Virus record (IMG/VR): IMGVR_UViG_3300037502_002036
Coordinates: 1-45,012 of that record
Source of the DNA: a virus
Length of the DNA: 45,012 nt
Direction: 5' to 3' (one strand)
Made by a program: the position numbers and the translations under genes. The notes beneath the pieces were generated by a model that saw only the letters and a program-made list of their open reading frames with translations, made no database searches and was not told the origin of the DNA. Shown in pieces: positions 17,950 through 40,480 of the stretch (the first letter of the stretch is position 1; the number at the start of each line of letters is the position of its first letter).

Positions 17950-18780
17950 ATGAATCCACGAGTCATGAAGTACACGGCAAAGGTTGGTTTCGATGCAGGC
18001 CAGTACACTTGGTTTGATCTCAGTGATCTGCCGCCAGAGTACGAACCGGAGCTAATGGAGTTTGCAAAAGAGATAGGTTGGTTTGAAAAGAGATTCAAGC
18101 TACATGAACTCCTTTTGCCTTCGAATGATCTAGCCCTCATCTTTGAGCACCCTAGTCATTCACAAGACTTTGTCTTCACTTACAACAAACTAATAAAAGT
18201 TGATTTTTATAACTCTGGTTACATTTACGAGGGACCTGCTGTTTGTGCGTATCTCCACCATGCACCAGACCCCACTCCGGTTGCACTTCTTTGCAATGAC
18301 ATCAACCCGCGCACGGGGGGATATCTCCACCTGAGACCGGATCTTTACAGAAGCTTTGAAGCTTCAGGAAACTTTTCTCGCATGTATGACACCATGACGC
18401 AGGAGATGACCAGCCCTTTCGTTGCCCTGTCCTTACTCAACAGGAAAGCGCTAGTCTCCGAAAGCACCTTGACCGCGTACAAAGGAGAAGAGAAGTCCTC
18501 CTTCATCAACAAGAAACGCCGCGCGAAGAACAAGCCCCCCATCTACAACTGGTCCACCGTCGAGCTAAAGCCAAGCGCCCCGCGCAAAGAGCACCAGGGC
18601 GGCACACATGCAAGCCCTGCGCGCCACGAGCGCCGTGGACACTTCCGCAAGTACCCCTCAGGCAAGATCGCCTGGGTACGCCCCACCTGGGTCGGCAGCA
18701 TCGAACACGGCATGACCGTGCACGACTACATCCCAGGCAAGGGGATTCTCTCTAGCCAAAATAGCCAAAGCGCCACATAA
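17950..18780 (+). CDS. Hypothetical protein with C-terminal RRGHFRKYPSGKIAWVRP motif
   Basis: The protein has 276 residues from ATG 17950, chosen because AGGAG lies 8 bases upstream; a TTG at 17926 lacks any Shine-Dalgarno. The C-terminal 70 residues contain HERRGHFRKYPSGKIAWVRP followed by TWVG, a basic motif I know from the ends of otherwise different Burkholderia and Pseudomonas phage proteins. The rest is not recognised. It is the last gene of the replication operon and is followed by two tandem terminators. A nucleic-acid-binding role is possible for the basic tail. Confidence 0.65.
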   Translation: MNPRVMKYTAKVGFDAGQYTWFDLSDLPPEYEPELMEFAKEIGWFEKRFKLHELLLPSNDLALIFEHPSHSQDFVFTYNKLIKVDFYNSGYIYEGPAVCAYLHHAPDPTPVALLCNDINPRTGGYLHLRPDLYRSFEASGNFSRMYDTMTQEMTSPFVALSLLNRKALVSESTLTAYKGEEKSSFINKKRRAKNKPPIYNWSTVELKPSAPRKEHQGGTHASPARHERRGHFRKYPSGKIAWVRPTWVGSIEHGMTVHDYIPGKGILSSQNSQSAT

Positions 18781-29529: not shown

Positions 29530-30615
29530 ATGTCGACACTTATGCAAGCCTCCCACCAATGGGCTACGCGCCCCGCCGAAGAGCGGTTTCTTTCATTGCC
29601 TGAAATGTTGGCCGCCGCCGAGGCCGAGCGCGCAATAAGTCGCGCCGCTGTCGTTTCGTCGCGCCGCCTTCGCGCCGTACCGACCGAAGATAATGCGGGG
29701 ATCGTGATCGAGGGGCCGAACGGCCACGCCTACGCGCCGACTCATTGGGCATTTGGTCAAGCGGCGAACCTCACCGGGGCCCCGGCGTCATACTTGCGCG
29801 GCCTCCCCGCCCCGCTCGCCGCCGATTGTCTTAATTATGGTTTTCAAGTCGAGCGCGACGCGCAGGAAATCGGGGTTTTACTTTCCCGCAATGGTTCGGA
29901 CCAAATTAAGGCCATGACCGGCCCGAGGTATGGCCGCATCTGGAATTCCGAGGTAATTCGCGCCCTCATTGATCGATTCGGCGACGGGCGAACGGGTGAT
30001 TTTCGGGTGCCGGGGGAGTATGGCCGCGCGGTCGAAATCACGCGCGAAAACACGACGCTATACGCCGGGGATCGTGACATGTTCGTTTTCTTGGCCGACG
30101 AAAATAATCGCGTCGAAATCCCGAATCGTCGCGAGGGTCAAACGGGCACACTCGCGCGCGGGTTTTTCGTCACGAATTCGCAAGTCGGCGCGGGGGCCTT
30201 GCGGGTTAAGACTTTTCTTTTTGATTATGTCTGCGCGAATCGGATCGTGTGGGGCGCGCACGAATTAGAGGAAATCAGCATCAGGCATACGGCGGCGGCC
30301 CCGGATAGGTTTATCGAAGAGGTAACCCCCGCCCTCTTGGCCTATTCTCAGTCGAGCGCGGCGAACCTCAACAATGTTTTGAAGGGCGCGCGCGAGTCGA
30401 AAATTGATAAGGTCGACGCATTTTTGGCGAATCGTTTCGGCCCCCGCGTAGCGCAACGAATCAATGCGGCACATGTTGAGGAGGAGGGCCGCCCGATCGA
30501 GACCCTTTGGGATGCGGTCACGGGCGCGACCGCCTATGCGAAATCGATCCCTTGGACCGCCGACCGCGTCGAATTAGAGACCGAGGCCGGGAAAATCCTC
30601 GACCTAGTCGACTAG
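29530..30615 (+). CDS. DUF932 family protein
   Basis: The 361-residue product matches the DUF932 family, common on plasmids and phages. Recognisable parts are HWAFGQAANLTGAPASYLRG, then QIKAMTGPRYGRIWNSEV, then MFVFLADENNRVEI, then ARGFFVTNSQVGAGALRV and FDYVCANRIVWGAHE. The molecular function is not established. It is the last gene of the GC-rich island, has the shared leader motif and is closed by a strong terminator. Its usual plasmid context is notable beside the parS site downstream. Confidence 0.85.
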   Translation: MSTLMQASHQWATRPAEERFLSLPEMLAAAEAERAISRAAVVSSRRLRAVPTEDNAGIVIEGPNGHAYAPTHWAFGQAANLTGAPASYLRGLPAPLAADCLNYGFQVERDAQEIGVLLSRNGSDQIKAMTGPRYGRIWNSEVIRALIDRFGDGRTGDFRVPGEYGRAVEITRENTTLYAGDRDMFVFLADENNRVEIPNRREGQTGTLARGFFVTNSQVGAGALRVKTFLFDYVCANRIVWGAHELEEISIRHTAAAPDRFIEEVTPALLAYSQSSAANLNNVLKGARESKIDKVDAFLANRFGPRVAQRINAAHVEEEGRPIETLWDAVTGATAYAKSIPWTADRVELETEAGKILDLVD

Positions 30616-30636
30616 GCCGCCCCGGCCCCGTTATAG

Positions 30637-30661
30637 CCCCGCCCCGCGCGGGGTTTTTTTT
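30637..30661 (+). terminator. Rho-independent terminator after DUF932 gene
   Basis: Stem CCCCGC / GCGGGG with loop CCCGC, followed by eight T. Confidence 0.88.
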
Positions 30662-30848
30662 GGCCGTTTCCCGCCCCCGGTTTAACCCGCCCCCGCGCGC
30701 CCCCGTTTCCCGGCCTATAGCCCCGCCCGTCGCGGGTTACATGCCCCGGTGTTCACCCACGCCACCGTGGCCGCCAATGCCCCGCAAACTAGGCCCCTCG
30801 GCCCCCGGCCCGTTATCCCTCCCCCTCTCCCCGCGTATCGTGGACCGT

Positions 30849-30876
30849 GGACCGTGTCCCGTGGACCGTGTCCCGT
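30849..30876 (+). repeat. Tandem 14-mer, two copies
   Basis: GGACCGTGTCCCGT occurs perfectly at 30849-30862 and 30863-30876, with a partial copy just before. Confidence 0.9.
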
Positions 30877-30900
30877 GCCCCCTCGACCGTGGCCGCCGCC

Positions 30901-30942
30901 CCGTCGAGCTCGAGCCCTCGAGCTCGGGCCCTCGAGCTCGGG
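30901..30942 (+). repeat. Tandem 14-mer, three copies
   Basis: CCCTCGAGCTCGGG at 30915-30928 and 30929-30942, preceded by a 12/14 copy at 30901-30914. Each unit is centred on the palindrome GAGCTC. Confidence 0.9.
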
Positions 30943-30945
30943 CCG

Positions 30946-30998
30946 CCGTGCGTGGTCCGTGTGCCTCGGTCCGTGTGCGTGGTCCGTGTGCGTGGTCC
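30946..30998 (+). repeat. Tandem 13-mer, about four copies
   Basis: GTGTGCGTGGTCC is perfect at 30973-30985 and 30986-30998, with degenerate copies at 30946-30958 and 30959-30972. Confidence 0.88.
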
Positions 30999-31197
30999 GT
31001 GCCCCCGTGGCCGTGGACCCCGGCCCCTCGACCGCGTCGCATGCCTCACGGCCCCCGCCCCGGGGGCGGAGTGCCGCCGCCGATTCCCGCCGCGCGTGGG
31101 CCATGGGCCGCGTCGCGCGCCGCGCGAGCCGCGCGCCGAAGGCGCGAAGGCTTTAGCCCGATTTCTGACAAATATTTACCAGCCAAAAGTGAATTGG

Positions 31198-31213
31198 TTA
31201 GTAGTCACTAACA
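31198..31213. repeat. Inverted repeat beside parS
   Basis: GTTAGT-AGTC-ACTAAC ends one base before the parS site. The overlapping TAGTAGTCACTAAC resembles TAGTGCTCACTAAC at 28371-28384 (12 of 14 bases). Confidence 0.75.
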
Positions 31214-31229
31214 TGTTTCACGTGAAACA
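31214..31229. other. parS: Canonical bacterial parS centromere site
   Basis: TGTTTCACGTGAAACA is a perfect 16-bp palindrome and identical to the consensus parS bound by chromosomal ParB (Spo0J) in many bacteria, including Betaproteobacteria. A chance match to 16 specified bases in 45 kb is negligible. It lies in the intergenic region before the large terminase. No ParA or ParB gene was found in the window, so host ParB is the likely ligand. Confidence 0.9.
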
Positions 31230-31236
31230 CCCCCGT

Positions 31237-31256
31237 CACTTTGCAAAATCAAAGTG
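31237..31256. repeat. Hairpin after parS
   Basis: CACTTTG / CAAAGTG around CAAAAT, followed by GGCCGGTATTTTT. It may be a weak terminator for read-through from the island. Confidence 0.65.
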
Positions 31257-31288
31257 GCCGGTATTTTTATAAAAATTTGAAACGGAAA

Positions 31289-31311: not shown

Positions 31312-32793
31312 ATGTCAGATCCAACTAACCCATCCGCCACGCCCCCAGACGTAGAAGCAGAGCGTCTTCGCCTTGAACTTCGATTAGCCCAGATTGCTGC
31401 CAGGGAGAAAGCGACGGAAAGCTTTTTGTCTTTCTGTCGGTACGTCTGGCCCGAGATGATTGTTGGGGCACACCATGTGAAGATCGCTGCCGCGCTAGAT
31501 CGTGTTGTGTCGGGCGAGTGCAAGCGTCTGATGATTGCGATGCCGCCCCGGCATGGGAAGTCGCAGATGGGGAGCTACTTGTTTCCGGCGTACCTGATGG
31601 GCAAGAGGCCTCAGTCAAAGCTCATTGTCGGATCTCACACGGCGGAACTGGCGCAGCGCTTTGGCCGGATGATCCGGAATCTTGTAGCGGAAGACTCGTA
31701 CAAGGAGTTGTTTCCCGAGTTCCAGTTATCGGCGGACTCGAAGGCTGCGGGGCGGTGGGACACGAACCGTGGTGGGGAGGCCTTTTTCATTGGTAAGGGT
31801 GGTGCGATGACGGGCCGTGGTGGTGACATTGTGATTTTGGATGACATCTTGGATGAGCAGGATGCGATGTCCATGACTGCGATGGAGAACACCTGGAACT
31901 GGTACACGTCGGGGCCTCGTCAGCGTTTGCAGCCGAACGGGTCGATTATTGTGATTAATACGCGGTGGAAGACGGACGATCTGTCTGGGAGGTTGCTCAA
32001 GCAACAAGGAGCACTCAAAGCCGACAAGTGGGAGGTTTTGGAGTTCCCGGCGATCCTCCCGTCTAACAAGCCTCTTTGGCCTGAGTATTGGAAGTTGGAG
32101 GAGTTAGAGGCTGTCAAGATGAGTATTGGGTTGTCAAAGTGGAATGCTCAGTGGCAGCAGCAGCCGACCAATGACGAGGGGGCGATTCTCAAGCGGCAGT
32201 GGTGGAAGGTTTGGCCGCACATGGATCCGCCGGATGTGGAGTACGTCATTCAGAGTTATGACACGGCGTACAGTAAGAAGGAGACTTCTGACTATTCGGC
32301 GATTACGACGTGGGGTGTGTTTTATCCGGATGCGGACTCGGGGCCGAACATTATTCTTTTGAATGTGTTGAAGGGTCGGTGGGACTTTCCGGAGTTAAAG
32401 CGTGTGGCGAAGGATGAGTATGTGTATTGGAAGCCGGACAATGTTTTGATTGAGGCGAAGGCGACTGGAATTACGTTGCAACAGGAGTTGCGGCGGATGG
32501 GGATTCCGGTGACAATGTACTCGCCTGGAGGGCGGCGCGCGGGCCAGGACAAGATATCCAGGGCGAACTCGATTGCGCCACTTTTGGAGTCGGGGATGGT
32601 GTGGGTGCCGGAGACTGAGTGGGCGGATGAGTTGGTTGAGGAGTGTGCGGCGTTTCCCAATGGGGATAACGATGACTTAGTGGACTCGACGACGCAGGCG
32701 TTGATGCGGTTTCGGGCGGGAAATTTTATATCGTTGGGCTCGGATGAAGTGGATGAGGCCAAGGATGAAGCGAAGGTACTGGAGTATTACTGA
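31312..32793 (+). CDS. terL: Terminase large subunit
   Basis: The 493-residue packaging motor has ATPase motifs MPPRHGKS (Walker A variant, 77-84) and VILDDILDE (Walker B, about 173-181), then INTRWKTDD. The C-terminal RNase H-like nuclease shows SYDTAYSKKETSDYSA (about 315), NVLIEAKATG (about 377) and NDDLVDSTTQAL (about 448), matching the TIGR01630 terminase C-terminal family. It cuts and translocates DNA into proheads with the small subunit encoded 3.6 kb upstream. Leu codons become mainly TTG after the first 60 residues. Confidence 0.95.
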   Translation: MSDPTNPSATPPDVEAERLRLELRLAQIAAREKATESFLSFCRYVWPEMIVGAHHVKIAAALDRVVSGECKRLMIAMPPRHGKSQMGSYLFPAYLMGKRPQSKLIVGSHTAELAQRFGRMIRNLVAEDSYKELFPEFQLSADSKAAGRWDTNRGGEAFFIGKGGAMTGRGGDIVILDDILDEQDAMSMTAMENTWNWYTSGPRQRLQPNGSIIVINTRWKTDDLSGRLLKQQGALKADKWEVLEFPAILPSNKPLWPEYWKLEELEAVKMSIGLSKWNAQWQQQPTNDEGAILKRQWWKVWPHMDPPDVEYVIQSYDTAYSKKETSDYSAITTWGVFYPDADSGPNIILLNVLKGRWDFPELKRVAKDEYVYWKPDNVLIEAKATGITLQQELRRMGIPVTMYSPGGRRAGQDKISRANSIAPLLESGMVWVPETEWADELVEECAAFPNGDNDDLVDSTTQALMRFRAGNFISLGSDEVDEAKDEAKVLEYY

Positions 32794-40009: not shown

Positions 40010-40480
40010 TTGGAAACAGCAACCGTCACACCCCTTACGCCTCTGGAGCAGAAGTGGCAGAAAGAGCGCGAAGAGAAGGGGCCAACCTTGGATGATGCGT
40101 ACAGCGATGAAGGTCGTTTTGATCCTTCGTCTTTGGAAGCGTCTGTCAAAGACCGTATTCCCACACCGACTGGCTGGCGCATTGCGATCCTGCCGTACCG
40201 TGGGGCGGAGAAAACCAAGGGAGGAATTGTCCTGGCAGAGGAAACCCAGAAGCGCACACAACTGGCAACGGTCTGTGGCTATGTGCTCAAAGTGGGTGAG
40301 CTTGCTTACAAGGACGAATCAAAGTTTCCCACCGGGCCTTGGTGCGCGGAGGGGGATTGGGTGATCTTTGGCCGGTATGCCGGGTCAAGGATTTCCATTG
40401 ATGGCGGCGAGATCCGTATTTTGAATGACGATGAAATCATCGGTCGGTTAAACGACCCTGAAGACATCCTTCACATGTAA
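40010..40480 (+). CDS. GroES-like co-chaperonin
   Basis: The product is 156 residues from TTG 40010, chosen because AAAGGAG is 8 bases upstream and no better start exists. The GroES beta-barrel begins at PTGWRIAILPYR (53-64). The mobile loop region is about 66-82 (EKTKGGIVLAEETQKR), with GDWVIFGRYAG (115-125) and EIRILNDDEIIG at the end. A 45-residue N-terminal extension is unusual. Like T4 gp31 it should cap host GroEL to fold the major capsid protein encoded downstream. Confidence 0.88.
   Translation: METATVTPLTPLEQKWQKEREEKGPTLDDAYSDEGRFDPSSLEASVKDRIPTPTGWRIAILPYRGAEKTKGGIVLAEETQKRTQLATVCGYVLKVGELAYKDESKFPTGPWCAEGDWVIFGRYAGSRISIDGGEIRILNDDEIIGRLNDPEDILHM

What the first reader, a model, noticed from the sequence alone, without database searches (positions are those of the whole stretch)
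31214..31229. Perfect chromosomal-type parS site in a phage without ParA/ParB genes
The sequence shows TGTTTCACGTGAAACA, identical to the consensus parS to which bacterial ParB binds and loads as a CTP-dependent clamp. It is intergenic, sits just before the large terminase and is flanked by an inverted repeat and a hairpin. No ParB, ParA or KorB-like gene is present in the window. Inference: the phage recruits host ParB. This could partition a plasmid-like prophage with the host chromosome, place replicating phage DNA in the cell, titrate ParB away from the host centromere, or regulate the terminase promoter by ParB spreading. I do not know of a described phage system that uses a bare canonical parS.
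Basis: partly seen in the sequence, partly recalled or inferred. Interest (0 to 1): 0.93.

Follow-up and report, generated by a model that had tools for sequence, protein, structure and literature searches.

The report
Host chromosome-segregation site in lytic phages
A family of lytic aquatic phages that lack segregation genes of their own carries, under strong selection, the exact 16-base DNA site that bacteria use to hold and move their chromosomes, so these phages most likely borrow the host's ParB segregation protein.

Summary
TGTTTCACGTGAAACA at 31214-31229 is a perfect chromosomal parS, 82 bp before terL, in a 45-kb viral contig without ParB or ParA. It is not chance: expectation is 8e-6 per window. 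In a set of relatives found by TerL, 26 of 50 carry the site or a near variant; the reversed-pattern control finds 0.

The site is under selection as DNA. In the window's clade it is the conserved block of a fast-evolving intergenic region. In another clade it lies inside a gene, as V[S/P]RET, with codon identity 0.97 against 0.44 elsewhere. Its place changes between lineages, so it is not simply a terminase operator. Phage variants match chromosomal parS of Comamonadaceae-type and Pelagibacter genomes. The obligately lytic SAR11 phage HTVC027P carries one. No integrase was found.

Best reading: a docking site for host ParB, probably to position or retain the infecting genome. Binding and benefit are inferred. 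Hence a new variant of a known kind: family-wide, in non-sporulating hosts. Some relatives, one on HTVC027P's own host, lack it, so it is not essential.

The parts
31214..31229 (.). parS palindrome TGTTTCACGTGAAACA, inferred loading site for the host's chromosomal ParB
   Evidence: conserved in relatives
31196..31212 (.). inverted repeat GGTTAGT-AGTC-ACTAAC next to parS; kept in L124, where parS itself is lost, so a separate element
31237..31256 (+). hairpin CACTTTG-CAAAAT-CAAAGTG between parS and terL; still able to pair in L124 and L125 despite changed bases (read by eye from the alignment)
31263..31276 (.). AT-rich palindrome ATTTTTATAAAAAT, kept in the near clade, possible promoter element of terL (not shown); occurs once in the window
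31312..32793 (+). large terminase subunit (TerL), marker used to define the phage family
34055..37078 (+). large ORF of unknown function two genes after terL; in other clades a large (~1000 aa) ORF that directly follows terL carries the parS inside its coding sequence (homology of the two ORFs not tested)
30616..31160 (.). GC-rich low-complexity region upstream of parS; contigs of relatives tend to break here

Best explanation
The site is a working parS: a cis-acting loading site for the host's own chromosomal ParB clamp, carried by a virulent ~60-kb podovirus-like family that makes no ParA or ParB. After injection, host ParB would load on the phage genome, spread a few kb and form a partition complex that host ParA (and perhaps SMC) handles like a chromosome origin. 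The most likely benefit is placing the infecting genome on the nucleoid and keeping it in the cell, or in both daughters, while replication is slow or stalled: the equivalent in non-sporulating aquatic hosts of Spo0J-dependent entrapment of phi29 in spores. Shown: the site exists, recurs, is selected as DNA, matches host parS variants, and comes without a phage ParB. Inferred: ParB binding, spreading and the benefit. I would give about 0.85 to host ParB recruitment and about 0.4 to positioning/retention as the benefit.
For: 26/50 TerL relatives carry TGTTYCACGTGRAACA (<=1 mismatch), control 0/50. More distant relatives: 18 of about 129 loci within 2 mismatches, control 0. DNA-level selection: inside parS 0.958 of rows agree against 0.580 outside in the window's clade; in the intragenic clade same-codon identity 0.974 against 0.444. 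The site occupies at least four kinds of place: upstream of terL, in the following large ORF (two positions), and elsewhere in the genome, with label changes on the TerL tree. Host match: all four forms {T,G}GTT{T,C}CACGTGAAACA occur among 40/41 genomes of the family of a Rhodoferax MAG, in the MAG itself at mnmG-rsmG; in 20/41 Pelagibacter-genus genomes exactly one TGTTTCACGTGAAACA, in rsmG next to parA, and 8/8 tested have one ParB. HTVC027P (SAR11 host) carries CGTTTCACGTGAAACA. No ParB_N in 50/50 family records nor in HTVC027P; no ParA in 26. Precedent: phi29 (PMC9437464).
Against: No binding or genetics could be done. The site is dispensable: L124 (TerL 93% identical) lost it while its flanks stay; L131/L132/L182 replaced the region; two freshwater clades, complete DSL-LC04 and 023Pt_psg01, and HTVC023P (same host as HTVC027P) lack it. 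The window's host is unknown; MAG contigs with relatives are assigned to conflicting phyla. The family is called virulent from one isolate and the absence of integrases, not by test. Nothing here separates positioning from titration.
Confidence: 0.7

Rival explanations
1. ParB sink: as phage genomes multiply, their parS copies draw ParB off the host centromere, stopping chromosome segregation and (through MipZ or similar) division, to the phage's advantage.
For: Pelagibacter genomes show a single exact parS, so a few dozen phage copies would outnumber it; some other phage contigs carry many sites (5 in L016 and L043, 12 in 5 kb of L086).
Against: Most family genomes keep one site although a sink would favour many; it works only late, after replication, when host segregation hardly matters.
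Confidence: 0.2
2. Copy-number-coupled gene control: ParB spreading from parS silences nearby late genes until replication dilutes ParB over many copies.
For: In the window's clade and in distant marine relatives the site is 20-135 bp upstream of terL; chromosomal ParB can repress neighbouring promoters and act over kb (review PMC7022226).
Against: In other lineages it is inside the gene after terL, 3.5 kb into late genes, 9 or 22 kb away, or between convergent genes in HTVC027P, 4 kb before terL; an operator would not wander so.
Confidence: 0.15
3. A phage-encoded protein (terminase small subunit, replication or regulatory protein) binds this palindrome; likeness to parS is convergent.
For: Frequent place near terL and near a region where contigs break, perhaps a genome end or packaging site.
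Against: The variants tolerated (T/C at position 5, T/G at position 1) are those of chromosomal parS (consensus lists in PMC7022226); the same site occurs in unrelated phages including phi29 and B103.
Confidence: 0.06
4. Chance, or host DNA carried along in the contig.
For: None found.
Against: 8e-6 exact sites expected per window, lineage-wide recurrence with zero control hits, no bacterial genes around it.
Confidence: 0.01

Closest known systems
Bacillus phage phi29 and host Spo0J (spore entrapment; Meijer et al. 2005, as cited in PMC9437464)
   Same: Virulent phage without ParAB whose genome carries bare parS-type sites: four TGTTTCACGTGGAACA in phi29, two parS in relative B103, in corresponding genes gp10 and gp15; host ParB acts on phage DNA.
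   Different: Sporulating Gram-positive host, small protein-primed phage, several sites. Here aquatic non-sporulating hosts, ~60-kb phages, usually one site, place varies between lineages, function untested. The primary paper is not held in the library.
Chromosomal parS of proteobacteria (mnmG-rsmG-parAB locus)
   Same: Same 16-bp palindrome and same variants; in hosts also embedded in genes as VSRET (rsmG, mnmG).
   Different: On a phage, one copy, no parAB beside it.
Phage-plasmid ParABS (P1, N15, mycobacteriophage RedRock, cyanophage Mic1)
   Same: Viral use of a centromere site.
   Different: Those encode their own ParA/ParB and cognate, non-chromosomal sites (Mic1: PMC7156551); here none.
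HTVC023P-type pelagiphages (PMC9599517, PMC12753301)
   Same: Same TerL family, GroES, gene order; HTVC027P carries the site.
   Different: A term search of these papers finds no mention of parS or ParB.

Membership tests
canonical chromosomal parS | 16-bp palindrome TGTTTCACGTGAAACA or tolerated variants | tested here: met
canonical chromosomal parS | lies near oriC / parAB | tested here: not met
   phage contig; no ParB_N or AAA_31
canonical chromosomal parS | bound and used as loading site by ParB with CTP | not testable with these tools
   needs EMSA, clamp-closure cross-linking or ChIP-seq
phi29-type virulent phage exploiting host ParB | bare parS without own ParB/ParA | tested here: met
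phi29-type virulent phage exploiting host ParB | virulent life cycle | tested here: inconclusive
   no Phage_integrase in 40 family records; HTVC027P reported obligately lytic (PMC12753301); window record incomplete
phi29-type virulent phage exploiting host ParB | host has chromosomal ParB and the same parS | tested here: inconclusive
   met for Pelagibacter, the host genus of HTVC027P; host of the window itself unknown
phi29-type virulent phage exploiting host ParB | host ParB alters the fate of phage DNA in the cell | not testable with these tools
   needs infection of a parB mutant
phage-plasmid ParABS | phage-encoded ParA and ParB | tested here: not met

The most novel reading that the evidence does not exclude
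Borrowing the host centromere is a general, previously unrecognised strategy of virulent phages: many unrelated lytic lineages keep bare parS sites so that host ParABS holds, moves or inherits their genomes during slow or stalled infection, giving lytic phages of oligotrophic bacteria such as SAR11 a plasmid-like persistence without any genes for it.
Probability: 0.4. Interest if true: 0.88.

Novelty: new variant of a known kind. Interest (0 to 1): 0.76.

Why it matters
ParB-parS is thought of as the bacterium's own machinery. A lytic phage family of lakes and oceans, including a cultured SAR11 phage, keeps the host's centromere sequence through relocations and inside coding sequence, without any phage ParB. 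That makes a direct test possible (ParB ChIP-seq and parS knock-outs in isolates) of whether lytic phages use the segregation machinery to place, hold or inherit their genomes, and would extend the phi29 case beyond spores.

Tried and rejected
Chance or host contamination: rejected by the conservation statistics. Phage-plasmid with own ParAB: rejected. Simple terL operator: weakened by the changing location. Protein-level constraint on VSRET: rejected by codon identity and by the same sequence in non-coding DNA. Host assignment through MAGs carrying the family TerL: inconclusive, conflicting phyla. Searches (over 50 handles; papers or record not held) gave nothing. One search was partly chosen after parS hits were seen and is not used for prevalence. 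One search fixed the pattern to KGTTYCACGTGAAACA, so it cannot show other host variants.

Full report
OBSERVATION. TGTTTCACGTGAAACA stands at 31214-31229, the only site within three mismatches. Under the window's base composition 8e-6 exact sites are expected. The site lies in the gap between an orf ending at 30615 and terL starting at 31312, with an inverted repeat 5' and a hairpin 3'. The window is the whole of a 45,012-bp IMG/VR record: TerL, portal, GroES, head protein, A-family DNA polymerase, primase, helicases. It has no ParB_N and no ParA-type ATPase. Relatives of 57-62 kb show that part of the genome is missing from the record.

CONSERVATION. TerL relatives were collected without regard to parS. 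Of 50 whole records, 26 have the site or a near variant, against 0 for the reversed pattern. In more distant relatives 18 of about 129 loci have it, again 0 for the control. Among 120 IMG/VR stretches taken only for holding an exact parS, 34 carry a TerL homologue and 26 of these are of this family. On the TerL tree the close clade of the window, a sister clade and far marine members share the place upstream of terL (20-135 bp).

SELECTION ON THE DNA. In the window's clade, anchored on the site, the majority base has mean frequency 0.958 inside and 0.580 outside; only positions 1 (T/G) and 5 (T/C) vary. In a second clade the site lies inside a large ORF after terL, in a variable linker, always as V[S/P]RET. 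Where two sequences share an amino acid, they share the codon in 0.974 of parS codons but 0.444 of the ORF (divergent pairs). L170 has two sites 90 bp apart. L159 has the site further along the same ORF, L152 and L139 elsewhere in the genome, L190 a second site 7.8 kb away. In isolate HTVC027P it lies between convergent genes gp31 and gp32, 4 kb before terL. A requirement for the site but not for its position speaks for a whole-genome function rather than an operator.

HOST SIDE. In the bacterial family of a Rhodoferax MAG that contains a relative's TerL, 40 of 41 genomes carry {T,G}GTT{T,C}CACGTGAAACA, usually two or three within a few kb. In the MAG they lie at mnmG-rsmG. These are the four forms seen in the phages; the pattern was fixed beforehand, so this shows that host forms include the phage forms, not that they are limited to them. 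In the genus of a Pelagibacter single-cell genome 20 of 41 genomes have exactly one site, always TGTTTCACGTGAAACA, in rsmG beside parA in the two loci read, and all 8 tested have one ParB. The review PMC7022226 lists the same consensus for Caulobacter, Hyphomonas and Burkholderia chromosome I. The host of the window is not established.

NO OWN MACHINERY, NO LYSOGENY GENES FOUND. PF02195 is absent from 49 family records and DSL-LC04, and from HTVC027P and 49 other parS-bearing viral records. In a third set of 50, 6 exceed the cut-off, which shows that the search can find ParB in such contigs. AAA_31 is absent from 26 records, Phage_integrase from 40. HTVC027P is described as obligately lytic (PMC12753301).

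PRECEDENT. PMC9437464 reports, from Meijer et al. 2005, that the virulent phage phi29 has its chromosome entrapped in spores by Spo0J, the Bacillus ParB. I find four copies of TGTTTCACGTGGAACA in phi29 and two parS in B103, in the corresponding genes gp10 and gp15. So the kind is known in one system; what is new is the family-wide, position-shifting site in phages of non-sporulating aquatic bacteria, and signs that it is widespread: parS-bearing contigs outside the family encode terminases, SU10- and P22-like portals, phi29-like proteins and microvirus capsids. None of the held papers that I searched mentions it; bioRxiv and most subscription papers are not held, so priority is not proven.

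MECHANISM AND LIMITS. Recruitment of host ParB is the simplest account. Which benefit follows is open: positioning and retention (favoured, from the single site, free location and the phi29 analogy), titration, or silencing of late genes. Against an essential role: L124 lost the site within conserved flanks, L131/L132/L182 replaced the region, and HTVC023P, on the same host as HTVC027P, has none. Contig breaks gather within 1 kb upstream of terL (39 of 130 against 9 downstream), so the region may also be a genome end or only hard to assemble.

Noticed in passing
window 30616-31160: GC-rich low-complexity stretch upstream of parS; in relatives contigs break 0-1 kb upstream of terL far more often than downstream (39 against 9 of 130): possible genome terminus or hypervariable region.
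   Followed up: partly
L086 8906-13878: Twelve parS sites (11 TGTTTCACGTGGAACA, 1 perfect) within 5 kb, several inside small ORFs, in a 116-kb viral contig without detectable ParB_N.
   Followed up: partly
L536 40-13409: Eleven sites of a related palindrome, TGTTACACGTGTAACA and mixed forms, spaced about 1-2 kb over 13 kb of a viral contig without ParB_N; may be another ParB-like system's site.
   Followed up: no
L016, L043, L048, L052, L074, L097: A distant terminase family (about 27% identical TerL) with one to five perfect parS sites upstream of terL.
   Followed up: partly
L373 (phi29) 10445, 15903, 17243, 18760; L599 (B103) 10120, 15611: phi29 has four TGTTTCACGTGGAACA, mostly inside genes; B103 has two parS sites, in gp10 and gp15, as phi29 does.
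   Followed up: partly
L001-L120, parS-bearing contigs outside the family: Two large ORFs near perfect parS sites match the microvirus capsid (Phage_F), others phi29-like proteins; not examined one by one.
   Followed up: no
L351 (HTVC023P) 18138-18153: Perfect palindrome TGTTACACATGTAACA, three mismatches from parS, in the relative that lacks parS.
   Followed up: no
window 40010-40480: Phage GroES-like co-chaperonin, a core gene of this phage family.
   Followed up: no
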